The position numbers and the translations under genes were made by a program. This document shows positions 14,590 through 62,420 of a stretch of DNA of 64,000 nucleotides, piece by piece; within the stretch, counting starts at the first letter, position 1; each line of letters starts with the position of its first letter. The stretch is from Morinoia aosen (lineage: Eukaryota > Arthropoda > Malacostraca > Amphipoda > Talitridae). Location of the stretch: contig CM059558.1 in the NCBI GenBank assembly GCA_030386875.1, forward strand, positions 5,589,501 to 5,653,500, in the 5' to 3' direction. The notes beneath the pieces were generated by a model that was not told the DNA's origin, did not search any database, and worked only from the letters and a program-made list of their open reading frames with translations.

Positions 14590-15700
14590 TGTTCCTATCT
14601 TTTATGTTATATATGTATTTTTTTTTTTTTTCTAATATTTTATTTTCAATAAGTATATAAATTAATATGTGTGTGTACGTGTGTAGGTATATATATGTAT
14701 CTACATAAATAGATATACATGTTTCTATTTCATTTCTTTACGCAAAAACCATTCGGTTAATAAATTTTATTGCAATTGCGAAATGATTCAAAAATAGATC
14801 TAGCACTTCCCCAGAGGGCGTTTCTGTGAATCGGATTAATGTCATATATAATTAATGAAATAAAGTGCAATTTGAGCATATGAATCGTAGTAAAATTATC
14901 TTTCTGTCCGTGTTTTGTACAAGCTATGAATTTTGATATTGAATATATGTTTGTTTACCCATTTCTACCAATATTTTGTAGATATTTGTCAATCATGAGT
15001 GGTAACCGGCTTACACTGTATCTCTATTTTATCCCATGTACCCATGTCCGCATGATGTGGTGAATATCGAGAAGATACGAAATATGTTTTTGGTGGTGAT
15101 AGGGCTTTGCATATTTTTTAGGGCATAGTTTTCATTTCTCATTCAACTACCCTTGACAGAGATAGAATATTGGCAAGCCACGTGTGGTTTGTCTATTAGT
15201 ACGCCTCGTATATTTTGTCTATTAATATGCCTCGTATGGTCTATCTATTTTGTACACCTCTGATAGCTTGTCTATTAGTACACCTCGTATAGTTTGCCTA
15301 TTATTATTATGCCTCGTATGGCTTATCTATTTGTACACCTCGGATGGTTTGTCAATTATTACTCCTTGTATAGAACTTTTGTTAGACTACTAGCACACCA
15401 CGAATGGGTCTGTCTATTAGTACGCCTCGTATATTTTGTCAATTAATATGCCTCGTATGGTCTATCTACTTGTACACCTCTGACAGTTTGTCTATTAGTA
15501 CACCTCGTATAGTTTGTCTATTATTATGCCTCGTATGGCTCATCTACTTGTACACCTCGGATGGTTTGTCAATTAGTACTCCTCGTATGGAACATTTGTT
15601 TTAGGATGCCCTATATTTAAGAAACTTTTAAAAGCCAATATGTTGGCATGTATCTCATGTGACAATTTGGAAATAAACATTTTTTCTTTTTTTCTTTTCT
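14590..15700 (+). repeat. Minisatellite-bearing 1.1-kb repeat, copy 1
   Basis: The head (T-rich run, TATATGTATCTACATAAATAG, TTTCTTTACGCAAAAACC) matches 54830-55330. The tail (TTCAACTACCCTTGACAGAG, then the minisatellite, then AAGCCAATATGTTGGCATGT and AATAAAC followed by T-rich sequence) matches 36.9-37.2 kb and 56.25-56.58 kb. The family has no coding capacity. The shared fixed 3-prime end, AATAAAC then polypyrimidine, argues for a defined non-autonomous element rather than chance similarity. Confidence 0.75.
15180..15600 (+). repeat. 26-bp minisatellite inside the 1.1-kb repeat
   Basis: Around fifteen degenerate units of about 26 bp with core TATTAGTACGCCTCGTAT followed by GGTTTGTC variants. 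The same array occurs in the copies at 36.94-37.14 kb and 56.28-56.50 kb. Apparent open frames with repeated STPR across it are a by-product of the period. Confidence 0.8.
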
Positions 15701-16145: not shown

Positions 16146-16919
16146 CTGCGTGTCCCACAAAAATATCCCGGACTTTTTAATTGATAATATCTCCGCTTTA
16201 AATTAACATATTTTAATTGTCTTTTATTTACAATTTAGTCAATTTTGTTTCCTTTTGAAATACTTTAAGTTTTTAAAAATGAGTTGAATAAACTTTAAGA
16301 TGATCGATTTACTGAAAGGGGTAGAAAAATTGTTCAAAGGGAAAGTTTTAAAAACAACACTGGTGTTCTTCTTCATTCCTCAATACCTACTGTTAAGAAT
16401 AATTTCATAACGATGTATCGTACATACAACTAAGTATTTGAACCCTCTGAGAGGTTTCAAGTTTCAAGTGTTCTCAATAATAGTGTTTCAAGGACTGATA
16501 GAAAACGGTGTAATAATGGGTAAAACTCTTCGATCAATGGTGGCTAGAAGTAATACTTGCCTTGAGAGAAATGGAGGGTATGTCGTTGGATACTAAAATT
16601 ACTTTTATTTATTTAAACGTTATATAAGGTAATGCTTTGTTACTCCTTAAAATTTTTGTGTGTTCATTTTTATGGAAACTGCAAAAAAAGGAACAATATC
16701 AATATTGTTTTAAAACTTTTCCTTTGAACAATTAATTTTTCTACTCCTTTCAGTGAATTGGACATTGTAAAGTGGTTATTCAACCGATTTTCAAAAACTT
16801 AAATTATTCGAAAAGGAAACAAAATTTACTTCATTGTGAAAAAAGGCAATTCAAATATCTTAATTTAAAGCTGAGAAATAATTAATTAAAAATCGAGGAC
16901 ATTTTTACAGGACACCCGG
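16146..16919 (-). mobile_element. Mariner-type MITE, copy 1 (774 bp, TA target duplication)
   Basis: The ends read CTGCGTGTCCCACAAAAAT at the left and ATTTTTACAGGACACCCGG at the right, an imperfect terminal inverted repeat, with TA on both sides (16144-16145 and 16920-16921). The inverted similarity extends inward for over 200 bp. The reverse complement is collinear with 27146-27720, so the two copies are in opposite orientation. A central RSNTCLERNGGYV-like frame resembles the far C-terminus of a mariner-type transposase, suggesting derivation by internal deletion. Confidence 0.85.
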
Positions 16920-22273: not shown

Positions 22274-23866
22274 TTACAAAGAATCAGCAATAAAATTTCG
22301 TTTTTGTCGCTCAGTCTCGCCTTCAATTACAAGTTCATCTCTCGGTTCATCATCACTTATACTTGGACAGTGACTTAATGAAAAATTGTGAAGGATGCAG
22401 CAAGCATGAATGATGGGTGCAGCATGTTCAATGTTGACTTCCAAGTACTGGAGAACTCTAAACCTGTTTCTCAGGTATCCAAATGCATTTTCAATTACTT
22501 GTCTGGATTGGGAAAGCTTAGTATTGAAATTTACCTCACGTTGTGTTAGGCGACCATTGTCTCTGAAAGGTGTCATCACATTCAAACACAATGAAAATGC
22601 AGAGTCACCAATGATGTGCAAATTTTTGCTAGGAAAGAAATCATTTGGATAGTTCTTTATGTTTTGACCAAAATTAGTCATATCCAATGCACGTTGGTCA
22701 TGTACACTTCCTGGGATGCCTGTAGCCACCATCGTGAATCGTTTTTCTGCATCACACACAGCAAGCAACAATACTGTGTGAACAAACTTCCGACTGTTGT
22801 AATCTTTCTGAACAGTTTCAGGCACTCTAACCTTAATATGCGTTCCATCAATGGCTCCAACAGTGCCTGGAAAATTTCCAATTGCTTCAAATCCTCTTCG
22901 TTTCTCTTCAAGATTCAGATGTTAAGACAGGTCCTTTGCCAAACAGGGCAAAGGCCCTGTCACAACATCTTTCTATTAATGAGAGCAACTGTTCATCATC
23001 CGTAAAAAAATAAATTTACTGAAAAAAGTGTGTATATTATGAATTTTGGTGATTTTTTTTACAATTATGAATTGGTTGCTTTATCTAGTATTCAATATGT
23101 TGTTTAGTATTTTCAGTATCAAGAACTTGAAACTTTTCCGAACCTTTTTTATTGCAATAATTATTGACTAAAACTACTCATTGTAGGCAGATTACTTACA
23201 TCTGGACATTTGGACAACATTCATAATATTAAAATTAGGTAGTAAATTTTTGCTGTTGAAGGTGGTAAAATGTGGAAGTGAAATATCAGTAGACATCTTT
23301 CTTTATTTCATACACTAATATATTACTAGCTTTCAATAGAATTGAGAGCTGTCAACTAGGTTATTCAATAGTTATTTGATGGCCTATAGGGTAACTCTAC
23401 TCAATTCCTTTACCAATAACAAAAGTAACCCTTTAAGGCCCACATTTTAACACTCATATTACTGTTATAACAACCACTATCACTAAACCGACACTGGCAT
23501 TATGTAGTCACTGTTATCAAGATGGGGAAGGAACTGCCACTCGGCAGTGAAGTTCAAAGGACACATTAGTGAACAAATTAAATAAGAAATACAATATATT
23601 TTTGTTATTTTTGAAAGAGGACTGTATAGTCCACTTGGGCGTTAAAGGGTTAAGTTCACTCAGGGTTAAAATATTTCTTTCAATTAACTTTCTAACAATT
23701 GCATATAACTGCCAATCTTGTATTACCTGTTAATCTCTCCATCATCAGCTGTAAAAAGCACTTCATTTACAACAGGAAAATTGTTCATGAGTGACTGTAG
23801 GTTCCTAAACATAACCGTTGAACCAGCAATGGCTGAGACTAGAATTTTATCTTGTTCATCTGTCAT
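22274..23866 (-). CDS. HARBI1-like PIF/Harbinger transposase (DDE_Tnp_4), intron-containing
   Basis: The main exon (from about 22912 down to TAA at 22274) reads GFEAIGNFPGTVGAIDGTHI, then GDSAFSLCLNVMTPF, then VIENAFGYLRNRFRVLQYL. These are the three catalytic acidic positions (D in AIDGTHI, D in GDSAF, E in VIENAFG) of the Harbinger/HARBI1 RNase H-like fold. The conserved HACCILHN motif near the end follows. The frame is open through the catalytic region, starting upstream of the first valine-proline. A likely first exon (23866-23727) starts MTDEQDKILVS and ends at a CAG|GTAATA donor in phase 2. The middle of the gene, including the helix-turn-helix region, is not resolved, so there may be a missing exon or damage near 22920-23000. 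Such transposases usually need a Myb/SANT partner; one is encoded 11 kb away, converging with this gene. It could be an active element, a relic or a domesticated gene. Confidence 0.8.
22926..22961. repeat. Short perfect-loop hairpin
   Basis: GACAGGTCCTTTGCC, loop AAACA, then GGGCAAAGGCCCTGTC form a 14- to 15-bp stem with one mismatch. It lies just upstream of the catalytic exon of the HARBI1-like gene, where the transposase frame is lost. Confidence 0.6.
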
Positions 23867-24419: not shown

Positions 24420-24627
24420 AACCCCAACATCGTGTTCACAGTTGCGTTTTCGGATCTGGTTAAGAGTTACTCCGGTGAGAGATACGCGGGTAACTCTCGG
24501 GGTTATGACTGGAAAACCGCCTCTATACTTCTATTCATTGTACTGTGGCGTAGCCGACACCTCTCCCGAAGCAAGCAGATCACTCTTACCCAGTTGCCGA
24601 GCACTCGCACCTCGGACAACTGCGCAG
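24420..24627 (+). repeat. LTR fragment of the 59.4-kb family, left half
   Basis: CCGACACCTCTCCCGAAGCAAG through CTTACCCAGTTGCCGAGC to GACAACTGCGCAG parallels 59515-59585 (CACCTCTTCCACGGAGCAAG, CTACCAGTTGCTCTC, GAACAACTGCGCAG). The homology resumes at 29553, showing that the 4.9 kb in between is an insertion. Confidence 0.65.
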
Positions 24628-24639
24628 TATAGACCGACC

Positions 24640-24780
24640 GGGGCCCCGGCCCCGGCCCCGGCCCCGGCCAACCCCGGCCATTTTGGCTGACCCCGGCCCC
24701 GGCCCCGGCAAGCCTCGAACATTTTTGCAGACCCTGGCCCCGGCCCCGGCCCCGGCAAAATAGTGCCCTAAACCGGGGTT
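24640..24780. repeat. GGCCCC hexamer array, left
   Basis: C-rich strand runs of GGCCCC in three blocks separated by CCATTTTGGCTGA and CTCGAACATTTTTGCAG. The array ends in AACCGGGGTTTTGGCCGGGG, where the strand bias flips. Confidence 0.9.
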
Positions 24781-24799: not shown

Positions 24800-26278
24800 T
24801 TTACTACCCTTTTTTCACTTCAAATTAATCCAAGTCAAGGTCAATTTAATCCAAGATAAGTTCAGTTTAATCCAAGTCAGATTCAAATACATCCGAGTCA
24901 AGTTCAAATTAATCCGAGTCAAGTTCAAATTAATCAGAGTCAAGTTCAAATTAATCCGAGTCAAGTTCAAATTAATGCAAGTCAAATTCAAATTAAACGT
25001 AATGAGTATCCAGCATTAGGAGGCAGAGTGTGATGCAGATCTTTGAACGGAGTAACATATAGAAATCAATTATAAAAACTTCGTATTAACTATACATTAA
25101 AGTTGTTCTTCAATTCTACATTGATGGCAGTGCGCATCCATTCAAATATTTATGTTCAAAGACAATTTTATGTTACACATGCACATACACATAGTAGCAT
25201 CGAGGATTTAATTACTCATATAGAGATTGATATGCGTGAAATTTCGTTTTATCACATATATAGTCATATATGCATGCAACTACGAAAGATTACCATTGGA
25301 TGATATGTAGATTTAACCTCTACAATAAATATAGCAACGAAGTCTGTTTTTGCTTGTTCAAACGATTTTTGTAAAAACAGGTTTCATTTTTTTGCTGGTC
25401 GAGATGATATATTTGCCTAGGCCTATTCATTTGAAGGGATGGCACAATTTTTATTGCTATTGCAGGATTGTATCTGTGTAGTAATGTACTCATATAAATT
25501 GTTATCAAATGGTATCGTACATAAGTGCTCAGTGAATCGCATTTACTCATTTCTTTTAAAGGTTAAATCTACACATCGTCCAGTGGCAATCATTTGTAAT
25601 TGCATGCACATATGATTTCATAAATGTGATGAAGTGGAATTTCAGGCATGTAAATCTTCAAATGAGTGGAAATAAATCCTCGATACGATGTGTATCTGTA
25701 ACATAAAAGTACCTTTGAACATAACTATTTGAATGTATGCATACTGCCATTAATTTAGAATTATAAAACAACTTTAATGTGTAGTATAATACGAAGTTTT
25801 CATAATTGACTTCTAACTGTTACTCCGCTCAGAGATCTGAATCACACTCTGCCTCCTGATGCTGGATACTAAGGACATTTTATGACAGCTTGTTTTAACA
25901 CTGCAGAAATTTTATGTATTCCTTGCTGAAAGGAAAAACGTTTTTCTTGCTCATCACATCCAACAGATACATTTTTAATACAAAAAACGCTCAAATTAAC
26001 GAGAGATTTATTTCGATTCTTAACTCAACTTGGAGCTGGATTAATTTGAACTTGATTTGGATTAGTTTAAACTTGACTTGGATTAATTTGAACTTGACTT
26101 GGACTAATTTGAACTTGACTTGGATTGATATGAATTTGTTTTGGATTAATTTGAACTTGACTTGGATTAAATTGAAGTTGATTTGGATTAATTTGAACTT
26201 GACTTGGATTAATTTGAACTTGACTTGGATTGATCTGAACTTGACTTGGACTAATAGTTTGAAGTGAATAAAGCGTAG
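24800..26278. repeat. Foldback-like long palindrome with 21-bp tandem repeats in both arms
   Basis: Arm 1 (about 24800-25318) and arm 2 (about 25557-26278) are imperfect inverted copies around a loop of about 235 bp. Examples are GTTCAAAGACAATTTTATGTTACA against TGTAACATAAAAGTACCTTTGAAC, and GGCAGAGTGTGATGCAGAT against ATCTGAATCACACTCTGCC. Each outer arm carries 21-bp tandem units (CCGAGTCAAGTTCAAATTAAT), about 9 in arm 1 and 11 in arm 2. Long inverted arms with internal tandem repeats are the architecture of foldback elements. No coding frame is credible; NPSQVQI repeats are the translated unit. Confidence 0.8.
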
Positions 26279-27145
26279 TGTGCCCGGCTACCCGCACGTG
26301 AAAAATTCACGTGTCTTTTAAACAAATTTAAAACGATTTCTCAAGAGATTTGCGATTTCATTGCAACCCTGAAGAACATGCAGTTACTGAAAAGAAAAAG
26401 CAGTATCTATGCTACCATCCAGTGTAATTATAATCCGGTGCGCAGTTATTGACATGAAAGAATCTCGACTTGCAGAGGTCCTAATATCAGCAGTTATTGA
26501 GAAGACGCTCTTTTTGTTAACTTGCTTTTATATTTCCTCTGAAATAGCAAACTGAATTTGGATACTCAGGTCCGGAATTAGTCTTGTTGTAATTACCTTC
26601 TCTGATGGAACTTGAAACTTCTTATTCAAAAACCATACAAAATTAAAACAGTTTCCTTTTCCAAAGGGTCGTAAGGATTGAGCGCGTCACATAGCCAGTA
26701 AATTAACAATTTCTCTCTATGTGTGTATTTGGTCGGTATTGTTTGGCTCCCAGTTTTTAGATTGAGTAAATGTTTCTTTTGAAGTCAGCTGTTTGCCAGT
26801 AGACGAAGACGACTTGCTACAATAGGCAGTTTTGTCACTGCTGCAACCAAAACTGTCTTTGTTTGTTTTCAATACATAGACATTTGGTTTTTCTTCTTGT
26901 TCGTTTTGTTTCTATTTTTCAATTCTTTTTCGTTGTTTGCTTTTTCTTCAGCTTCCAGGAATTGATCATTTTGTGTCGATTTTAGATGGCCCCATAAATA
27001 TTTAGTTGAGAAAGTTTTCTAAGATGCCCCAGCAGCTCCTCGTCGTATATTTGCTTCACAAATGGTGCACCCTTCAATTTCTACACACTTCACCGATATG
27101 TTAAAGTAATCCCATATTGCTGACGCACTACTTTTAGTCATTGTA
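26279..27145. other. No gene recognised
   Basis: Unassigned interior of the 4.9-kb element. It begins with a small palindrome CACGTGAAAAATTCACGTG (26295-26313). Confidence 0.45.
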
Positions 27146-27732
27146 CCGGGTGTCCCACAAAAATGTCACTGAGTTTCAATTGGTTATATATCCACTTCAA
27201 ATTTACATAATTTAATTTTTATTTTTTCCCAATGTAGTAAATTTTATTTTATTTTCGAATAATTTATGTTTTTGAAAATCGTTTAATAACCACTTTAAAT
27301 TGATCGATTAACTGAAACGGATAGAAAAACTAAATTTTCGAAGGAAAACATTTCAAAACAATATTGATATTCTTCCTTATTTTGCACTTTCCAAAAAACC
27401 GAACAAACAAAAACTTAAAAGAGTAACAAATCAATTCATTAAAGAAATTTTAAATAAAGTAATTTAGCATCCTTCAACATACCCACCATTTCTCTCAAGG
27501 CAAGCATTACTTACTTCTAGCCACTATCAAACAATGAGTTTTGCGGATCATTTCACCGTTTTCTTTTAGTTCTTGAAACACTTCAACTCGTTGTCGAAGA
27601 ATTATTAATGATGGAGGTGATGTTTTGAAACGCGTTACTTCACAGTAGGTAATGAGAAATGAAGAAGATCACCACTGTTGTTTTTGAAACTTTTCCTTTG
27701 AACAAATAATTAATGGAGCATTCTTTTAATGG

Positions 27733-27765
27733 CAAACGTTTCGGAATCTCTGATTCCATCATCAG
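27733..27765 (-). ncRNA. Hammerhead-ribozyme-like core, left repeat
   Basis: On the minus strand, CTGATGA is followed by the hairpin GGAATC-AGA-GATTCC and then GAAAC. This is the order of the catalytic core, stem II and GAAA box of a hammerhead ribozyme, and such ribozymes are known from the terminal repeats of Penelope-like elements. One extra T lies between CTGATGA and stem II. Stems I and III and the cleavage triplet are not resolved. Confidence 0.45.
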
Positions 27766-28980
27766 TGCAGTAAAACAAGGAATAAAATACCTACTGTGAA
27801 ATACCTACTGCGAATGTATCGTTCACAGGAAGAAGCCCTAAAATTCTTTGACTACATAAATGGATATCAAGCCAAGATAAATTTCACAATGGAAACTGAG
27901 TAGAATGATAAATTGCCATTTTTAGACTTTCTCGTAAAGAAAACCAATTCAACGTTCACCCCCTCTGTTTAAAGAAAACCTACATTTACGAGATTATGTA
28001 CCAATTTCTTCAGTTGCATTTACATGGGTTATATTAAAACAAGTATCACTACATTATTGCATTGAGCATACCGTATTTCAATTTCATATAAAATATTTCA
28101 TGACGAAGTGAAATATATCACTAAGTTACTTGTACAAAATAAATACCCTGTAACTTTCATTAACAATCTGGTTAAAATTTTTTTAGACAAAAAACTTTTC
28201 CCTCCGTGTACAATTCTGACTGCACCAAAGCAAAAAGTTGTCGAGCTCTCTTTCTTGGGCTATCTTTCAAGGAGATGAGAAAAGATCTTTTATCTCTGAT
28301 ACACTCTCATTTTCCTTTCATTGACGTGTTATCATTTTTTAAAATAAGTTCATTTTTCATAAGAAATAGCGTTTAGAAGAGTGCCTGAGAAATGGTAGTT
28401 TCTACTTGTATAAATGTGATTGCTGCCTGCAGTCCTATGTTGGAATACCACACTCCTGCAATTGATTCGTCACAGCCAACACTCTGGTATCTCCCATGGA
28501 ATCGGCCGTCCATACTCATCTCCCTCCCAGTCAGCCATCAGAGATCATTGCCATAGTTCAAACCACCCTTTCAAAAGTTCCAATTTCTCCATACTTTGTA
28601 GAACTGCAAAGGAATTTGACCTTAGAATTTTGAAATCATTGTTCATTTTTACCCATAGACCTCAGCTAAATAATGATCAAAGTGCGATGAAATTAAATAT
28701 TGCCCCAACTGTGCAAATAAGAGTGAGTTGGAATGTATGTGTGTGTGTTTTGTGTGTGTGTATGCAGTTCTGTTACTTTGTGTATATGTTATTGTGTGTT
28801 GGTTTGATTGCTAGAATTTAGGTGTATGTGTACGTGTGGCTTCGAATGTTTAAGAGAAATTGTGTTTGTATTTTTAATGGTTAGCCATAGCTATTTTTCG
28901 ACGTAGGTATAGTGATATTAATTTCTTATAGCTTTTTCGCAATTTGTTCATTATCGTTTTTTATTCCTTGTTTTACAGCA

Positions 28981-29012
28981 CTGATGGTGGAATCAGAGAT
29001 TCCGAAACGTTT
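28981..29012 (+). ncRNA. Hammerhead-ribozyme-like core, right repeat (one core substitution)
   Basis: CTGATGG (final core A changed to G), then GGAATC-AGA-GATTCC and GAAAC, in inverted orientation to the left repeat. The core substitution would be expected to lower or abolish cleavage in this copy. Confidence 0.4.
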
Positions 29013-29399
29013 GCCATTAAAAGAATGTTCCCTTTTATATTGGTTCTTCTTTTCATTTTATGTATTAGATTTCCCAAATAATCGCCCTTTTAATTCTATT
29101 AAATTATTCGGAAAGGAAACAAGATTTACCACATTGTGAAAAAAAAATTCAAATATGTTAATTTAAAGTGAAGATAGAATCAATTAAAAAGTCGGAGACA
29201 TTTTTGTGGAACACCCGGTACATTTAATTACTATAATTGTTTCTATTTTAAGTAATTCAACAAGCACTGCAACTGCAAGTCTACAAACTTTATGACTCGA
29301 CATAAATACACACCCAACCGCAACCGTAATTCAACATGCATTGAGCCACTAACCGGCGTTATGCATTACGTCATCGTGATACCTCCTGACACGGTCTGA

Positions 29400-29540
29400 A
29401 CCCCAGCCCCGGCCCCGGCCCCGGCCCCGGCTGTGGTAAATTTGATAACCCCGGCCCCGGCCCGGCCCCGGCCCGGCCCCGGCCATGACAAATTTGTTGA
29501 CCCCGGCCCCGGCCTCGGCCCCGGCCAAATTTTCAACCCC
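29400..29540. repeat. GGCCCC hexamer array, right
   Basis: GGCCCC/GGCCC runs in blocks split by TGTGGTAAATTTGATAA, ATGACAAATTTGTTGA and AAATTTTCAA spacers. The C-rich strand is the plus strand, as in the left array, although the terminal TATAGACCGACC repeats are inverted. Confidence 0.9.
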
Positions 29541-29552
29541 GGTCGGTCTATA

Positions 29553-29700
29553 CTGCGCAGCTTCCCTACTGCAATAACTCTCGTTTCTCCGCAGAAACTA
29601 AACAGCTCAGTCACTGACTCACGATACAGAGCAGAAGCGCAACGCGAAAATCAGGTACGCAGTTTACGTCTTTACTCCACGACTGTCAACGACACACCTA
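29553..29700 (+). repeat. LTR fragment of the 59.4-kb family, right half
   Basis: CTGCGCAGCTTCCCTACTGCA, then ACTCTCGTTTCTCCGCAGAA, then CACGATACAGAGCAGAAGCGCAAC parallels 59577-59670 (ACTCTAGTTCTACCGCAGAA and CACGATAATAGGCAGAGGCGCAAC). It is the continuation of 24420-24627. Confidence 0.7.
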
Positions 29701-29779
29701 CTTTGGTTACTTTGGTCCAATTAGGCACATCACCAGTCACAGGGAAGAGTGCCAGATGTCATAGCAACTAGAACGTGGG

Positions 29780-32700
29780 GCATTTAGATTTGATTCATCA
29801 TCCCAGTATTGGTAATGAATTCAAGGACCAGCTCAGCACTGAATCCCTCACCAAGCACACTACTTGCATCAAAAGACACTTTTTGGTCCCTGGCAAGGTC
29901 TCTCATTGCCTTCCGCTGAAGTTCAAATGCGGGGCAATCAATCAATATATGACAAATATTCAAGTCACACCTACAGTTGCTACATTTAGGTTTTGTTGCT
30001 TTGGTAAATAAGTGTTAATGCGTTATTTCAGTGGTAAGTAGCCTTAACCTGGTCAGAATGACCTGCTTTCCCCTTGAGACCTCAGTGTTCACTGTAGGTT
30101 TTAGTATGGGTTTAATTTTGTGGTACAGGAATTGTTCCCTATCCCATTCTTTTTGCCATTGCCTTCTACAGTGCAAGTTTATGTATCCTCTCAGATCTGT
30201 GTATTGTATTAGGTTAGAACTATTTGTGTTTAGAAGACAAGCTGTTTTTGCCAACTGATCTGCTTTGTCATTTCCCATAATTCCAACATGGCTTGGTATC
30301 CATTCAATGACTAGTTTTCTGGGAGGAAGGCTTTGAAGTATATGTTTAATTTTGGAAACTAGATGTCGTTTAGATGGAAGCAGTTGATTTATAGCCTGAA
30401 TAGCGCTGAATGAATCTGTGTACAAAATAAAGTCTTCTATTTGGGTTTATGCAAACTTCAATGCGTAGTAAATAGCGGTAAGCTCTGCTGTGAGGATTGT
30501 AGACCTATCAGGAATTCTAGCCAGCATGCTAACGTGTTGGGACCAAATTCCTGCTCCAGCTTTAGGACCCTGAACTGAACCATCTGTGTACAATGCCCTT
30601 CTATCTTTGTATTCTTCGTGGAGTTGGTTGTATAGCTGTTTCCAAATGGTTTTCTGATATGCAATTTTTTTGATAGCACCCCAGATTGACTTTACAATTT
30701 CCACTGATATTTTGGGATTTACATTTGTTTGGGATGAGGCCAATGTCTTCCATTTTAACCCGTATCTCTTGAAAGAAGTTATATATTCGACCAGTAACTG
30801 GGAGAGGCTTGTTACTGTTTTGGAACAGCTGGTATGGGTAGTAGTCCAAACATATTGATCGGACTGGATGGTTTGGAACACTAAGTACTCTCAATCCATA
30901 TTGACACAGTTGGATTTTCCTTGCATGTTTAAGTGGTAGTAAATTTGCTTCTGCTTCCACGTTACTAACTTTTGTACACCTCAGTGCACCCAGCATCAGG
31001 CGAGCAGCAGCATACTGGACTCTGTCCTAGGACAACAGGTGGGTTGCACAGGCCGTATCAAAAAGAAAACTTCCATATTCTAGTTTTGGCAATATAATGG
31101 TATAGTAAATAGTTTTTAGTATGTTATATTCTGCTGACCATTTCAGATTGGATAAAATGCGCAGAAGCCTTAGATCTTTTTGGCACTTTTGTGTTACTTC
31201 TTTGATGTGTAAACTCCATCTCAGTTGCGAGTCGAGGGTAAGTCCTAAGAACTTGAACTTCTTTACATATTCTATCTTTGTGTTGTTATATTTTAGTTGG
31301 AAGGAAGGTTTTGTATGTTTATGAGTAAACACCATGCACTTGGTTTTTTTCAGCAGATATTTGAAAGCCCCAGCGTTGCGACCCACTTAAAAGAATGTCA
31401 AAAGCTTCCTGTAAGATACTGAGTATCCTGAGCCAAGTTTGGGTGTATAATCCAAAAGGCTCCATCATCTGCATAAAGAGATGATTCCAGCATTGGGGGA
31501 AAGTCATGAAATATATCATTTATCATTACATTGAAAAGTGTAGGGCTTATGACTGATCCTTGAGGAACACCAGTGTTCAATGTGCATATCTTAGATAAAG
31601 CATTATTTATCCTCACCCTGATGTTGCGATTTTTTATAAAGGATGCAATCGTTTTTGGTAGATTTCCCTGAAGACCCATAATTTCCAGTTTTTTATCAGT
31701 CCATGATGCCACACCGTATCAAAAGCACGCTTGATATCGATAAATATAACAATGCAAAAGTCCTGAAGCATGAGGGCTTTACGAATTGAGTTTTCTAGCC
31801 GAGACATTCCATCTAGAGTGGAGTGACTGGCTCTAAAGCCACTTTGGTTTCTATCAATTAAATTTTTATCCTCCAGATAAAAAGACGAGTCTCCAATTAA
31901 TGATTTTTTCAAATAATTTGCACAATGTATTTGTGAGGGCAACTTGCCTGTAGGACTTTGGGTCTGTAGGATCTTTACCCGGTTTTAAAATTGGGCAAAT
32001 TACTGCTTCTTTTCAAGGCATGGGAATTTTTGTGTTCCCTACTATGTTGAATAGGCGTAAAACTGTGTTTTTTGGCTTTCATTCATACTTTTAATGAATT
32101 CTATTGGGATTGTATCAGGGCTTGGTGTTTTGGTCTTGGAGCTTTTTAGTGCCCTGTCAAGTTCAGCATAGGTAATTGGATGGTTGTATTGATGATGAGG
32201 AGCAGGAGTGAAATGTATAGGCGACAGTTCGCTGGTAACCGTATTTTCAGAAAATAAAGGATCCTGAGTCTCACTAGAGCTAAACGATTTGTATTGTTCT
32301 ACTAGAATGTCAGCCACATCTTTAGGACATGTGACCACCTCGTTGCGGATTTTCAATGTTATTTGACTTCGGTTTTGTTTTCCATTTATTGCTCTGATTT
32401 TTCTCCATGCTTCTGCTGACGAGCTTTTATCATTTAGACTGGCTACATAATTTTTCCAACTTTCCGCTTTTGCTTCAACGACTGTTTTTCTGAAAATGGC
32501 TCGAGCCCTTTTAAATGCAATCCATTTTTGCAGGTTTCCACGGTGATTTTTATGTTGATTGTAAGCCCTACGATATTCCCTGTGACTTTCTTTACATTTT
32601 TCATTCCACCAACAGTTCACTCTCCGTCTAGTTTGGCCCATGCTACTCTTTTTTACACTGTCCTCTGTTGCACTAATAATTGACTGTGTGACCTCTCTAC

Positions 32701-36135: not shown

Positions 36136-37240
36136 GAGCTTGACTGTCATTTTAGTTGTAGCAAGAGCAAGATTGTTTTTTATGTGTATTAGTATTTTTC
36201 TTATTTTCATTTTAAATTTGTATATAAATGAATATGTGTGTGGAAGAGTGTGCATGTATGTGTGCGCACGCATATATATATATATGTCTATGTACTATTG
36301 TACCTGTATGCACATGTACATGTTCGCCATATACTTACTCACACATATATATATGTTTCTATTTCTATTTTTTGCGTAAAAGCAAAACCCAAAGACACAT
36401 TACATTTTACCTAAAGCTCTGCGATCAGGTAACACCGAGCCAAATTCCAGAAATAAATATATTTATTGCGCTTGCTTAATGATTCAAAAATAGATCTATC
36501 ACGACCCCAGAGGGCATTTCTGTGAATAGAAGAAACTAAAAATACAAACAGACAAATGAAATGAAGCGCTCGTGAAAAAATTATCTCCATGTGCATATGA
36601 TGAACAAGTCATGAATTTCATTTTTGCGTGTAAGTTTGTTTACGTATTTCTAGATGTGCGTGCTGCATGTGTTGCGCGATGTTCATTATAAATTACTTTG
36701 TGACTAACCTTTTCTCAATACTTGATTGTCATTTACGATGGTGTTTCAATCTGCTCCGGTATGGCGTTTTTTGTGTTTTTCTTACTTCGATTCAACTAAT
36801 AACTTAGGAGTTTCAAAGAATTCTTTAGTAGTATTTGAATTATTTATAAGTTGTTAGCCATCTCTTGGAGTATAAAATATCCAACAGATGATATTTTTCA
36901 TTTTTATTCAACTATCCCTTGACAGAGTTAAATTATTAGCACGCCACGAATGGTTTGTCTATTAGTACCCCTCGTATAGTTTCTCTATCAGTACGCCTCG
37001 TATGGTCTATCTAATTGTACACCTCTGATAGTTTGTCTATTAGTATACCTCGTATACTTTGTCTATTAGTATGCCTTGGATGGTTTATTTATTTGTACAC
37101 ATCGGATAGTTTGTCTTTTAGTACTCCTCGTGTGGAACGTTTGTCTAAGGACGTCTTATATTAAGAAATTTTTAAAAAGCCAATTTGTTGGCATGTATCT
37201 CAAGTGGCAACGTCGTTGAAAATAAACGGTTTTCTTTTTT
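36136..37240 (+). repeat. Minisatellite-bearing 1.1-kb repeat, copy 2
   Basis: Closely matches 55490-56590: the GTGTGCGCACGCA block, the TATATATGTTTCTATTTCTA block, AAATTACTTxxTGACTxACCTTTTCTCAATACTTG, TTAGCCATCTCTTGGA, then the 26-bp minisatellite (36940-37140) and AAGCCAATxTGTTGGCATGT followed by AAATAAACG plus T-rich sequence. No credible gene. Confidence 0.8.
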
Positions 37241-48189: not shown

Positions 48190-51100
48190 ATGACAGGCTC
48201 CGTAAGTGAAAGTGCAAAGTACTGCCTCACGGCTCTAATGATAAAAACTATCCTACGTGGAAGCTGCAAATGAAGATGCTCCTAATGAAGGAAAAGCTCT
48301 GGAACTTGGTTCGAGGAACGGAAACCATGCCACAGACTACGGACGAGACTGCTCGAAGAAAATTTGAAGAAAGACGTGACAGTGCACTTGCAACAATTGT
48401 GCTTGGTGTAGAAACGAGTCAACTGTATTTACTGGGTGATCCTACAGACCCTGTGCAACTGTGGCACAAAATTGAAGATACATTCCAAAAGAAAACTTGG
48501 TCTAACAAGTTCAGACTACGCAAAAGACTCTACAACATGAAACTAAAAGAAGACCAAGACTTACAAACTCATCTCAAAGCATTTGTCGAAATATTTGAGT
48601 CCTTGAGTGTGATTGATGACGCTGTTGATGAAGAAAGTCGTGCAATAATCTTGCTGTCGTCACTTCCCGACCACTTTTCCACACTCGTGACTGCACTGGA
48701 AGCTCATGAAAAACTACCGTCATGGGACATTGTGACAGAGCGTCTTCTGAATGAAGAAGCAAAACTGAAAAACCAAAGTGCTTCAGATTTCAGTGAAAAA
48801 TCCCTTGTGACCTCCAAATTGAAAAACTCAAGATGTTTCGAATGTGGAAAAACGGGACACCTACGCACCAAGTGCTGGATCTATCAAGAAAAGTTGAAGA
48901 AAGAAGATGGGAACCACACAGAAGACCAGAAAAATTTTGTAGCGGGTAAAACCAATTATATCAGTGCATTGTCTGTGATAAATATCAATGATTGTTGGGT
49001 AATTGATTCCGGTGCAACAGCACACATGTGTAATAATAGGAATGATTTTTCTTGTATGAATGAGCTATCTAGTCCAATTAACATTGAAGTTGGTGATGGT
49101 AGAAACTTGCAAGGTGTTGGTGTAGGTGATGTTGAAGTTATGGTGTTGTTGCCTAAAGGTCTAGTAGATACCTGTGTTGTTAAGAATGTTCTATATGTAC
49201 CTGGTTTAGCCTACAATTTACTATCTGTGCCTCAGATTACAGAAAGTGGAAACTTAGTTTGCTTTGACAAAAGCTCATGTAAGATTGTAAATAAAGACAA
49301 CAAATTGATTGCCTTAGGCAGTAAAGTAGGAAAATTGTATAAACTTAATTGCACCCTTAATTCAGCTGCTAAATGTATGAACGTTTCCTCTGATGAAATT
49401 CTGTGGCATAAACGATTCTGTCATCTAGGATTCAATAATCTTAAGAAATTAGCCACTAAGAATCTTGTTAAAGGTTTTGATTGCTCTGTGAGTGGAGATA
49501 ACATTTTTTGTGAAAACTGTTGTGATGGTAAAAATCATAGGCTTCCGTTCCCCAAAACAAACCACAAAAGGGAACGCCAACCCTTAGAACTTATCCACAG
49601 TGATGTGTGTGGCAAGCTTAATCCCATATCACTTGGGAGTGGAAGGTACTTTGTAACCTTCATAGACGACCACTCCAGGTATACCTGGGTGTACATTATC
49701 AAACATAAGAGTGATGTTTCTAAAGTGTTTCAGGAGTTCAAATCTTTGGTAGAAAATCACTATGATCACAAAATTAAAATCCTGCGCTCCGATAACGGTG
49801 GGGAATACATCTCTAATGACTTTGAACAATTCCTAAAAAGGGAAGGAATTATCCATGAAAAAACTGTGCCTAAGACACCTGAACAAAGTGGAGTTGCAGA
49901 AAGAATGAATAGAACTCTTCTTGACTCTGTCAGAGCTATGCTGTCTGGCTCAAAGTTACCAAAATCATTCTGGGGTGAAGCTATATCAACTGCCGTGTAT
50001 GTCAAAAATAGGAGCCCTGCTAGTGCATTGAATGATATGACCCCTTATCAGGCCCTTAATGGACACAAGCCCAATGTACAGCAACTCAAAACCTTTGGCT
50101 GCAGTGCGTACGCTCATGTCCCCAAAGATGAGAGGGAAAAACTTGATCCAAAATCTAAACCGTGTGTTCTTGTAGGATATGGAAGTGGATCTAAGGGATA
50201 TCGTCTGTATGACATAAGCAGCAGAAGGATATTTTTGAGTAGAGACGTTACGTTCAATGAATCTCAGCAGATGCCAATTGAGAAGGAGCTTTCAGAAGTA
50301 AATGATGGTAATTTTACTCTTCTTCCTCAGGATCCAGAACCAGAAGACTCTGAGGGAGGAGTGGAGCATAGACAGTCAGATGCTGGGATGGAGGGAGTGG
50401 AGCCTAGACAATCAGCCAGGTATCGACGGGCTCCTGATAGGTTTGGTGAATGGGTGTATTTAATGAAAAATGAGCTTGATATACCATCTTGTGTTCAAGA
50501 AGCACTCAGTGGACCAGAAGCAAAACTATGGGAAACAGCTATGGAGAATGAGATGGAGTCTATAAATCAAAACAAAGTATGGTCTCTTGTAGAGTGTCCT
50601 AATGACAAAAACCTATCAAATCAAAGTGGATCTTTAAAAGAAAAACCGGACCCGACGGGAGCATTTGCTCTTACAAAGCTCGCCTTGTGGCTCAGGGCTA
50701 CTCACAAAAATATGGCATTGACTACGACGAGACCTTCAGTCCCGTGGTTCGATTTGAGTCTGTCAGGACAGTACTAGCTTTGGCTGCCAAATGCAACATG
50801 CAAGTCCATCACATGGACGTTGCAACAGCCTTTCTTAATATAGAACTGATGGAAGAACTTTACCTGGTTCAACCTGACGGGTTTATTGTCAAAGGCAAAG
50901 AAAATCTTGTGTGTAAACTACAAAAATCGCTCTACGGACTAAAACAAGCTCCTAAGTGTTGGAATACTACACTAGATAGCTATTTGAAGAAATTGGGTTT
51001 GGTACAATCTAAGAGTGATGCTTGTATATACACTCGTGTTCAACAGAAGAAACTGTGTTTTGTGGCGGTGTATGTAGACGATCTAATAATTGCTTCTGAG

Positions 51101-52029
51101 TCTGGTGACGAAATAAATCAAATAAAGATGAGTCTTTCTTCCCAATACCAAATGAAAGATCTTGGTGTGCTGAGTTACTTCCTAGGTGTAAGTGTTGTAC
51201 AATCTAAAAACAATGTTGTCTTAAATCAAACTGCGTACACTGAGGCTTTGTTGTCAAAATTTGGCTTCGATAATTGTAAACCTGTTGCAACTCCCGCTGA
51301 CGTAAATGTAAATCCGATATGTTCCCCAAATGATGTCGAATTTGACCCTGCCACTTATCAAAGTGCTGTAGGTAGCCTTTTGTATTTATCAACCAGAACT
51401 CGACCTGACATTGCATTCGCTGTGAATAATGTTGCTAAATACAGCTCCAAACCTCTTGAACAGCATTGGATGTGTGTTAAGAGAATTTTCAGGTACCTCA
51501 GAGGCACCTCTAAACTAGGTCTCTTGTATAGCAAATGTTCTGATACTTGCATTGGTTATTCAGATGCTGACTGGGCTGGTGATAAAATGACCGCAAGTCT
51601 ACCTCTGGTTACTGTTTCACCCTCAGTAATTCGGTAATTACGTGGAGATCTAAGAAACAAACTTGTGTAGCCCTTTCAACGGCTGAAGCCGAATACGTTG
51701 CTCTTGCCGGTGCGGCTCAAGAGGCTGTCTGGTTGAAGCACTTACTCAGTGATCTAAATTTTGGTGCTATGGAACCAATGGTTATAAACGAAGACAACCA
51801 GTCAGCCATCTGTCTTGCCAACAATCCCAAATATCATGGGAGGAGCAAGCACATCGATATTAAGTTTCACTATGTACGGGATCTTGCGAGTAACAAAGAC
51901 ATAGACGTAGTGTATTGCCCTACCGACCAAATGCTCGCCGACATATTTACCAAAAACCTGCCCATAGAAAAGTTCTCTAGACTGAGAACGAAGTTAGGAA
52001 TGGTCTCATCTGACACACATTCAATGTGA
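48190..52029 (+). pseudogene. Copia Gag-Pol polyprotein with about three 1-nt frameshifts
   Basis: Starts at ATG 48190 (MTGSVSESAK), with a one-base shift near 48220 into the long frame 48270-50777. Domains in order: UBN2/Gag region; zinc knuckle CFECGKTGHLRTKC; protease IDSGATAHM; integrase zinc ligands HKRFCHLG...CENCCDGK; integrase DDE (HSDVCG, RSDNGGEY, QSGVAERMNR). A second shift near 50610 moves RT into 50687-51637 (AQGYSQKYGIDYDETFSPVV, FLNIELMEELYL, YVDDLIIAS). A third near 51590 leads to RNase H (ALSTAEAEYVAL, HIDIKFHYVRD) ending at 52027-52029. Single Gag-Pol organisation with integrase before RT defines copia. Confidence 0.93.
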
Positions 52030-55489: not shown

Positions 55490-56590
55490 CTTTGGCTGTC
55501 ATTTCAAATATAGAAAGATCAAAATTATTTTTCATGTTTATTAGCATTTCTCTTATATTCATTTTCAATACGTATAAATATGAATATGTGTGTTAGTATG
55601 TGCATGGGTGTGTATGTGTGCGCACGCAAACATGAATGTCTATGTATCAGTGTACACATGCACACGTTTCGCACATATATATATATACACAGGTACATAT
55701 ATATGTTTCTATTTCTACTTTTTGCGTAAAAAGCAAAACCTCATGACACATTACATTTTACCTAGAGCTCTGCAATCAGTTAACACTAAACAAAATTACA
55801 GAAATAAACAAATTGATTGCGCTTGCTTAATGATTTATAGATCGATCTATCACGGCCCCGAAGGGCATTTCTGTGAATAGAAGAAATTAAAAGTATAAAC
55901 AGATAAATGAAATAAAGCGCTCGTGCAAAAATCATCTCTATATTTGTATGCCGAACAAGCCATGCATTCGATTTTGAGTGTAAGTTTGCTTACGCATTTC
56001 TAGATGTGCGTGCTGTGTTGCGCGGTGTTCTTTTATAAATTACTTCATGACTTACCTTTTCTCAATACTTGACTGTCATTTATGATGGTGTTTCAATCTG
56101 CTCCGGTATAGGGGTTTTTGTCTTTTTCATATTTCGATAATTTCAACTAAGAACTTGGGAGTTTCGAAGAATTCTTTAGTAGTATTCGAATTATTTATAA
56201 GCTGTTAGCCATCTCTTGGAATATAAAATATTCAAGAGATAATATTTTTCATTTCTCATTCAACTACCCTTGACAGAGTATGACTATTAGCACGCCACGT
56301 ATGGTTTGTCTATTAGTACGCCTCGTATATTTTGTCTATTAATATGCCTCGTATGGTCTATCTATTTGTACACCTCTGATAGTTGGTCTATTAGTACACC
56401 TCGTATAGTTTGTCTATTATTATGCCTCGTACGGCTTATCTATTTGTACACCTCTGATGGTTTGTCAATTAGTACTCCTCGTATGGAACTTTTGTTTCAG
56501 GACGCCTTATGTTAAGAAACTTTTAAAAGCCAATATGTTGGCATGTATCTCATGTGGCAACTTGGGAAATAAACGTTTTTTTTTTCTTTT
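55490..56590 (+). repeat. Minisatellite-bearing repeat, copy 4
   Basis: Close match to 36136-37240, with the full 26-bp minisatellite at 56280-56505 and the same end (AAGCCAATATGTTGGCATGT, AATAAACG, T-rich). Confidence 0.8.
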
Positions 56591-61891: not shown

Positions 61892-62420
61892 GCACTGGGT
61901 CCAGTCTCGCGAATTTCTACACCGCCCAACCCTCTCCCTCCACCTACAAGCAGCTACATAAAGTTGCCATTCGCGCCAATTATTGAACTATGTAGTACTA
62001 GTGACGTTTATTAACCTATCTGTTCGTTATACATTTATTATTAATCACTGCATTATAACCACTACAAGTACTTAGTGAGTAGATACTTGAGCGGAATGCC
62101 AAAGTTAACCTATATTAAATCATTATAATAAGTCTTGACAACGACCGCTGGTGTTTGGCTATTCGACCCTCCATCTCGGCACGCAAAAACATGCGTTTTT
62201 AAACTTTTTTAAGTTAACCTTAAACTAACTGAACTTGGCCTAACCTAACCCAACCTAACCTAACTTAACCTAACCTCTTAACCTAACTAACTTAACTTAA
62301 CCTAACCTAAATTAATTTAACCTGACATTTCTGTAGCTGTTTGGAGGTGGTGCTGTAGCTGCTTGGAGGCGAATGGAGAGGGTTGGGCGGTGCAGAAATT
62401 CGCGAGATTGGACCCTGTGC
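61892..62420. mobile_element. 529-bp MITE with 46-bp inverted termini and 9-bp TSD
   Basis: Both sides carry CTCCCGGAG (61883-61891, 62421-62429). The ends GCACTGGGTCC and GGACCCTGTGC are inverted, and the match runs on through CTCGCGAATTTCT and CCGCCCAACCCTCTCC. It splits the Pol frame between RT (ELRE) and RNase H (HLARYGL). A 9-bp duplication with long inverted termini fits Mutator-like elements. No transposase inside. Confidence 0.88.
62225..62325 (+). repeat. Degenerate CCTAA/AACCTAACC tract
   Basis: Runs of CTAACC, TTAACC and CCTAACCTAACC inside the MITE. CCTAA is the complement of the arthropod telomere repeat TTAGG, but the tract is irregular and internal. Confidence 0.8.

What the first reader, a model, noticed from the sequence alone, without database searches (positions are those of the whole stretch)
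27717..29099. Penelope-like remnant flanked by inverted hammerhead-ribozyme-like repeats
A 70-bp repeat carrying CTGATGA, stem GGAATC/GATTCC and GAAAC occurs in opposite orientations on either side of PLE RT and GIY-YIG remnants. Hammerhead ribozymes are known in PLE terminal repeats, which can be direct or inverted. AAACGTTT after the core is self-complementary, as expected for minimal ribozymes that act as dimers. One extra T and one core substitution make function uncertain.
Basis: partly seen in the sequence, partly recalled or inferred. Interest (0 to 1): 0.75.

Follow-up and report, generated by a model that had tools for sequence, protein, structure and literature searches.

The report
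Decayed Penelope retrotransposon with hammerhead-ribozyme repeats
A worn-out copy of what looks like a Penelope-type jumping gene sits inside another transposon, with a small self-cutting-RNA motif at each end in opposite directions, an arrangement already known for this kind of element.

Summary
Two inverted arms (27711-27790 minus, 28956-29035 plus; 80 nt, 6 mismatches) each carry a minimal type I hammerhead layout: stem I GCA/UGC, CUGAUGA (CUGAUGG on the right), an extra U, 6-bp stem II, GAA, self-complementary ACGU. My descriptor finds no other site in the window. The arms end a ~1.36-kb insert (27711-29074) of decayed ORF, nested in a short-TIR transposon whose uninterrupted paralogue lies at 16146-16919. 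An 8-bp repeat brackets the insert; only the right arm has a ~39-nt extension. Inverted pLTR, short TSD, one-sided tail and a hammerhead over the ORF start match published Penelope anatomy. The extra U is not in itself a defect: full hammerhead architecture occurs in 81 of 126 viral-contig matches with U, 2 of 42 with A, 0 of 30 with C. Rfam found no hammerhead, but also missed 40 of 40 control candidates at gathering. Limits: no library confirmed the decayed protein, no genome copies were available, cleavage is untested, the right arm has lost core A9. A new copy of a known kind.

The parts
27146..29218 (.). Host element: TA-flanked short-TIR (mariner-like by its ends) DNA transposon, interrupted by the Penelope-like insert
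   Evidence: TIRs CCGGGTGTCCCACAAAAATG at 27146 (+) and CCGGGTGTTCCACAAAAATG at 29199 (-); nested inverted repeats
16146..16919 (-). Paralogous copy of the host element without the insert (empty site)
   Evidence: blastn hits of both halves and none of the arms; alignment with the joined flanks, 580 identical of 812 columns, 102 of them gaps; ends
27703..27710 (.). Probable target-site duplication, left copy, CAAATAAT
   Evidence: an 8-nt match arose in 81 of 3000 shuffles and in 80 of at most 3000 random genomic draws
29075..29082 (.). Probable target-site duplication, right copy, CAAATAAT
   Evidence: right boundary uncertain between 29047 and 29099, because 29075-29102 shows no significant match to the paralogue (150 of 300 shuffles as good)
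27711..29074 (+). Penelope-like insert, truncated at its 5' side
   Evidence: boundaries from the paralogue and the direct repeat
27711..27790 (-). Inverted pLTR (left arm), without tail; open 17 codons from the first ATG
28956..29035 (+). Direct 3' pLTR (right arm)
29036..29074 (+). Tail: ~39-nt extension of the right pLTR, reading frame stays open; not recognisably host transposon
   Evidence: open frame; tail against transposon score 26, reached by 71 of 300 shuffles
27732..27768 (-). Hammerhead motif, left arm: GCA / CTGATGA / T / GGAATC-AGA-GATTCC / GAA / ACGT / T (predicted cleavage after this T) / TGC
   Evidence: sequence, descriptor scan
28978..29014 (+). Hammerhead motif, right arm; core CTGATGG (A9 to G), otherwise as the left arm
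   Evidence: sequence, descriptor scan
27820..28275 (+). Decayed RT-like part (NDKLPFLDFLV...RKPTFT...), three in-frame stops inside
   Evidence: translation; family by recalled motifs only
28343..28704 (+). Decayed GIY-YIG-like endonuclease, split over two frames
   Evidence: translation (frames 28262 and 28261); recalled motifs only, no Pfam hit
27785..27814 (+). Filler at the junction of the inverted pLTR (overlaps its last 6 nt) and the ORF remnant: a 14-bp unit about twice, 13 nt of it matching the transposon flank at 27639-27651 in inverse
   Evidence: a 13-nt match was reached by 2 of 3000 shuffles and 2 of at most 1500 random draws

Best explanation
This is a dead, 5'-truncated copy of an endonuclease-bearing Penelope-like element (PLE) of an animal, perhaps an arthropod, inserted into an older nonautonomous TIR transposon. 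Its pLTR carries the minimal type I hammerhead of PLEs, laid over the start of the ORF. Inferred formation: the element's enzyme cut both target strands 8 nt apart, and each 3' end primed reverse transcription on tandem PLE RNA, one end starting near ORF position 91 (giving the tail) and the other near 52 (no tail). The right cDNA ran through pLTR, 3' UTR, endonuclease and RT parts; the left one stopped after about 80 nt; the two were joined through filler copied from the target flank. Inferred function while alive: hammerheads of neighbouring copies in one transcript, or of two transcripts, pair by ACGU/ACGU into dimers and cleave after the U ahead of UGC. Shown: anatomy, nesting, repeats, motif. 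Inferred: family of the ORF, priming, cleavage, dimerisation. The left motif could still be active in RNA; the right one is probably weak.
For: Nesting with an uninterrupted paralogue in the same window. 8-bp direct repeat at the break. Inverted arms, extension on one side only, open frame from the ATG through the tail. Published PLE anatomy: inverted pLTR, TSDs of 8, 9 and 10 bp in three cases (other copies had none), 31-bp tail at one of the inverted pLTRs, pLTR holding the first codons (PMC3846280, passages); a PLE enzyme that cuts and extends both strands, starts reverse transcription inside the ORF start at two sites, and whose ORF begins at stem II with the cut site 26 bp downstream (PMC11167929, section 3). 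Here the cut would fall after nucleotide 25 counted from the second ATG of the left arm. Only two descriptor sites in 64 kb, both arms. PLE hammerheads are described as minimal type I motifs in tandem that may self-cleave as dimers (PMC7761336, passages).
Against: No Rfam hammerhead hit at any threshold tried. No significant protein-family, PDB, plasmid, phage, viral-contig or prokaryote-genome hit for the ORF remnant; the best was an unrelated Pfam domain below its cut-off (PF25094, E 0.017). The 8-bp repeat alone is not decisive (about 2.7% by chance), and the sequence just after it does not align significantly with the paralogue. Arm energies are ordinary over 101 nt (z 0.56 and -0.23) and only modest over 50 nt (z -2.15, -1.63); unconstrained two-strand folds do not show the hammerhead. 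No covariation can be tested: both copies have the same stems.
Confidence: 0.85

Rival explanations
1. The inverted arms are part of the host TIR transposon (its subterminal inverted repeats) and the hammerhead resemblance is accidental.
For: The arms lie inside nested inverted repeats of that transposon.
Against: The paralogue at 16146-16919 has the outer repeats but not the arms, which match nothing else in the window; none of 200 shuffles gives a strict site.
Confidence: 0.03
2. The element is Penelope-like, but the hammerhead-like sequence is only coding sequence for the first residues (M-M/V-ESEIPKRLPLKEC) and never or no longer cleaves.
For: The motif overlaps an open frame in both arms; A9 is lost on the right; the PAc hammerhead showed no cleavage without protein, and cleavage was dispensable for insertion in vitro (PMC11167929).
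Against: The other core positions, stem II, the palindromic ACGU and stem I are kept in the left arm, and the extra U is one that other hammerhead-like sequences carry.
Confidence: 0.3
3. A retrozyme or another nonautonomous hammerhead element inserted next to an unrelated RT remnant.
For: Animal retrozymes also carry type I hammerheads (PMC7229834, passages).
Against: Those are short tandem repeats (150-450 bp), with a stable helix III in most invertebrates; here the arms are single, inverted, continuous with an ORF start, and end one insert.
Confidence: 0.04

Closest known systems
Penelope-type EN-containing PLEs of Adineta vaga (Pen2/Pen2a, PMC3846280)
   Same: Inverted pLTR at one end and direct pLTR at the other, 5' truncation in some copies, short TSD in some, tail on one side, first codons inside the pLTR (passages)
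   Different: Shared pLTR part here is 80 nt against 181-218 bp there; heavy decay; not placed in a tree
PAc hammerhead of the Anolis Poseidon element (PMC11167929)
   Same: Hammerhead over the ORF start; C3 and G8 before the start codon (true here for the second ATG of the left arm); cut site about 25-26 nt downstream; two reverse-transcription start sites explain a tail
   Different: PAc sequence not seen, so the extra U cannot be compared; activity untested here; right arm has A9 to G and keeps only the first ATG
Minimal type I hammerheads of PLEs (Cervera and De la Pena 2014; Lunse et al. 2017; titles seen in reference lists; papers not held)
   Same: No helix III loop, palindromic ACGU suited to dimers
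   Different: Extra U between A9 and stem II; whether their collections contain it could not be read
Hammerheads with an extra nucleotide after A9 (De la Pena and Flores 2001; title seen, content recalled, not held)
   Same: Insertion recalled to be at the same position, with U there raising the rate
   Different: Recalled as a viroid ribozyme study, not a retroelement

Membership tests
EN-containing Penelope-like element | ORF with telomerase-like RT and GIY-YIG endonuclease | tested here: inconclusive
   Motif-level remnants in the right order, by recall; no significant library hit; Pfam gave no match for the recalled RT consensus either
EN-containing Penelope-like element | pLTRs in direct and/or inverted orientation including the first codons of the ORF | tested here: met
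   only one direct and one inverted copy, body of the ORF lost
EN-containing Penelope-like element | Short TSD and optional 30-40-bp tail at one end | tested here: met
   CAAATAAT at 27703 and 29075, about 2.7% by chance; 39-nt extension on the right only; the tail rests on the right boundary being at the repeat
Type I hammerhead ribozyme | Core CUGAUGA ... GAAA with NUH cleavage site, stems I and II | tested here: met
   Left arm complete with one inserted U; right arm departs at A9
Type I hammerhead ribozyme | Match to the Rfam hammerhead models | tested here: not met
   the test is insensitive: 0 of 20 and 0 of 20 candidates reached at their places at gathering; with RF00008 alone, sub-threshold at 4 of 5 no-insert places and 0 of 4 U-insert places
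Type I hammerhead ribozyme | Compensatory changes in stems among copies | not testable with these tools
   Both copies have identical stems; no genome held
Type I hammerhead ribozyme | Self-cleavage | not testable with these tools
   Needs an RNA assay

The most novel reading that the evidence does not exclude
The extra U is kept because it is the middle base of an initiator AUG made of A9, the inserted U and G10.1: the ribozyme core and the start codon are one object, so cleavage 25 nt later cuts the start codon off the ORF. Each PLE transcript would then be either a message or a cleaved replication intermediate, and, since the PAc hammerhead needed the element's protein to cleave in vitro, the protein would switch its own message off. 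Against it: the right arm has lost this AUG and keeps only the one before it, and the same U is common in viral contigs where I did not look for a start codon.
Probability: 0.2. Interest if true: 0.6.

Novelty: new member of a known kind. Interest (0 to 1): 0.3.

Why it matters
As a locus it is an ordinary fossil of a known kind of retroelement. It is useful because an uninterrupted paralogue in the same window lets both ends be read: the two ends differ by 39 nt, as expected if the two reverse-transcription start sites of a Penelope enzyme were used one on each strand, and the inner join carries filler matching the target flank. It also shows that the inserted U that looked like damage is common in other hammerhead-like sequences, and that Rfam gathering scores are a poor refutation test for such motifs.

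Tried and rejected
Rfam at gathering on the whole window and at E <= 10 on the region and each arm: no hammerhead. Controls on viral contigs: at gathering, no hammerhead in 6 loci and none at the places of 20 U-bearing and 20 no-insert candidates (the shortest 20 loci of those behind 81 and 69 matches, chosen); one Hammerhead_II hit (L218:1587-1663) lies away from the candidate place. I first thought the models were blind only to the extra U, but they missed the no-insert set too at gathering, so I dropped that claim; the single-family search still favours the no-insert places (4 of 5 against 0 of 4). In some searches single families gave sub-threshold matches in 1 of 6 and 4 of 6 records, which I did not map to the candidate places; the same searches also ring at E <= 10 in 13 and 10 of 14 control genomes, so such matches alone mean little. 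Protein homology: stretches matched seeds but none was a relative by tblastn in viral contigs (21, 123) or prokaryote genomes (305); a DNA motif pattern gave two genome loci, not relatives judged by eye on their translation, and none in viral contigs; plasmids and phages gave no match; PDB gave only chance-level matches (E 1.1). A scan for the exact stem found nothing in viral contigs. Folding did not decide. The idea that 29036-29074 is transposon sequence found no support (71 of 300 shuffles score as well).

Literature: Cervera 2014, Lunse 2017 and De la Pena 2001 are not held. A search for Penelope with LPFLD gave no paper. PMC3088659 (passages and section 8) discusses insertions in hammerhead cores, but the text that I saw does not name this position. 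PMC10085705: one passage, in its reference list. Of the listings I opened nothing further.

Swap controls passed 13.8% (U), 0.6% (A), 0% (C) and 5.7% (none).

Full report
What is there. No genome is held for the window. It holds several transposon genes and a degenerate CCTAA array, which hints at an arthropod (inference). In 26500-30500 the longest inverted repeat is 27700-27790 / 28956-29046, 91 nt at 90%. Outside it lie further inverted pairs, 27142-27176 / 29188-29222 and 27219-27266 / 29100-29147, which are the ends of a TA-flanked short-TIR transposon: CCGGGTGTCCCACAAAAATG at 27146 (+) and its near-copy at 29199 (-). A second copy of this transposon lies at 16146-16919 in the opposite direction and matches both halves.

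Nesting. The paralogue matches, with gaps, up to about 27707 and again from about 29099. The joined flanks align to it with 580 identical of 812 columns, 102 of them gaps. So about 1.36 kb was inserted into the transposon. The direct repeat CAAATAAT occurs at 27703-27710 and 29075-29082; a match of 8 nt between such stretches arises in 81 of 3000 shuffles and in 80 of at most 3000 random draws (near pairs skipped), so it is supportive, not proof. The stretch 29075-29102 does not match the paralogue significantly (150 of 300 shuffles as good), so the right boundary could lie anywhere from 29047 to 29099.

The insert. From left to right: an inverted arm (27711-27790, minus), a filler (27785-27814, overlapping the arm by 6 nt), a decayed ORF in the plus direction, an A+T-rich 3' region, a direct arm (28956-29035) and a 39-nt extension to 29074. 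The arms share 80 nt with 6 mismatches. The ORF remnant shows an RT-like stretch (27820-28275) and a GIY-YIG-like stretch split over two frames (28343-28704). I recognise these from recalled Penelope motifs. No tool confirmed it: Pfam, NCBIfam, PDB, plasmids, phages, viral contigs and prokaryote genomes gave no significant relative (the best was an unrelated Pfam domain at E 0.017, below its cut-off). Pfam gave no match for the recalled consensus either, and the only strong match (39% over 122 residues) is to that recalled consensus, typed after reading the remnant, so it has little weight.

The ribozyme motif. On the minus strand of the left arm: GCA / CTGATGA / T / GGAATC-AGA-GATTCC / GAA / ACGT / T / TGC (27768 down to 27732). 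The right arm is the same at 28978-29014 except that A9 is G. Stem III would be the self-complementary ACGU, possible only between two hammerhead copies. A scan of both strands finds these two places only; shuffles give 0.100 loose sites per shuffle and no strict one in 200. The motif overlaps an ORF start: MMESEIPKRLPLKECSI on the left, MVESEIPKRLPLKECSLLYWFFFSFYVLDF on the right.

The extra U. I scanned viral contigs for CTGATGA-x-GG...CCGAAACG with x = U, A, C or nothing and asked in how many matches stem II >= 4, stem III >= 3, a UH site and stem I >= 4 all form: U 81 of 126, A 2 of 42, C 0 of 30, nothing 70 of 122; swap-control rates 13.8%, 0.6%, 0% and 5.7%. Thus an inserted U at this place is common in hammerhead-like sequences and A or C is not. 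This agrees with the recalled content of De la Pena and Flores 2001 (title seen; paper not held). None of these candidates was tested for cleavage.

Rfam. No hammerhead model matched the arms. As controls, cmscan at gathering reached none of 20 U-bearing and none of 20 no-insert candidates at their places (one Hammerhead_II hit elsewhere in L218). One U-bearing candidate gave no hammerhead match even at E <= 10. Searched with RF00008 alone, 4 of 5 no-insert places scored 14.8-17.1 bits and 0 of 4 U-insert places scored; with RF00163 none of the 9 places scored, though two other places in those records did. In those two searches 8 and 13 of 14 control genomes also ring at E <= 10, so only the agreement of place is informative. 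So the negative is weak evidence.

Mechanism. In the Anolis element PAc the enzyme cuts and extends both target strands, starts reverse transcription at two sites inside the ORF start, and the sequence between them is the tail; [quoted passage not shown] In rotifer elements inverted pLTRs, TSDs of 8, 9 and 10 bp (none in some copies), a 31-bp tail on one of the inverted pLTRs and 5' truncation are described (PMC3846280, passages). At this locus both ends of the insert read as cDNA starts near the ORF start: position 91 on the right, 52 on the left, counted from the first ATG. I infer two strand-primed syntheses from an 8-nt staggered cut, joined inside. The join carries 13 nt matching the transposon flank at 27639-27651 in inverse, reached in 2 of 3000 shuffles and 2 of at most 1500 random draws, which suggests that the join was made at the target by templated repair. 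Self-priming on antisense RNA, proposed in PMC3846280, is the alternative.

Known or new. A review states that PLEs carry minimal type I hammerheads, in tandem in pLTRs, which may cleave as dimers, with role unknown (PMC7761336, passages; similarly PMC6155905, passages). This locus is one more such copy. Its age can be guessed only roughly: 6 of 80 arm positions differ, while the transposon copies are about 82% identical over ungapped columns. The boldest open reading is that A9, the inserted U and G10.1 form the start codon, so that cleavage and translation exclude each other; in the left arm the cut would fall after nucleotide 25 of such an ORF, close to the 26 bp reported for PAc. The right arm keeps only the first ATG, which speaks against it or is decay.

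Noticed in passing
window 24803-26279: Foldback-like element: arrays of a 21-bp repeat (TTCAAATTAATCCAAGTCAAG) in opposite orientation near both ends, arms 83-85% complementary over about 180 nt, with further inner inverted repeats.
   Followed up: partly
window 24620-24643 and 29537-29560: A perfect 24-nt inverted repeat (CTGCGCAGTATAGACCGACCGGGG) beside GC-rich CCCCGG arrays frames a 4.9-kb stretch that contains the foldback-like element and the transposon with its Penelope-like insert.
   Followed up: partly
window 15187-15590, 36934-37131, 56284-56486: The same 26-bp tandem repeat with a 78-bp higher-order period (GTTTGTCTATTAGTACACCTCGTATA) at three separate places.
   Followed up: no
IMG/VR loci L001-L120 and L193-L311: Many hammerhead-like sequences with full architecture, with and without a U after CUGAUGA; of 40 loci tried, Rfam at gathering reported none at the candidate place. 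Some records hold two pattern matches (L032, L035, L048; L212, L228, L254).
   Followed up: partly
L055:1960-3439 and L089:799-2631: Viral contigs in which the candidate hammerhead shares the record with Twister-P5 (L055, two copies) or Pistol (L089) ribozymes.
   Followed up: no
window 48210-50774: Long copia-type gag-pol frame with gag, BBD, pre-integrase, integrase and SH3-like domains; a further open frame with copia-like RT motifs (recalled) follows at 50606-51637.
   Followed up: no
window 22277-22921, minus: DDE_Tnp_4 transposase frame, E 3.5e-36.
   Followed up: no
window 62219-62323: Degenerate CCTAA (TTAGG-type) array inside the sequence, a hint at an arthropod source (inference).
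   Followed up: no
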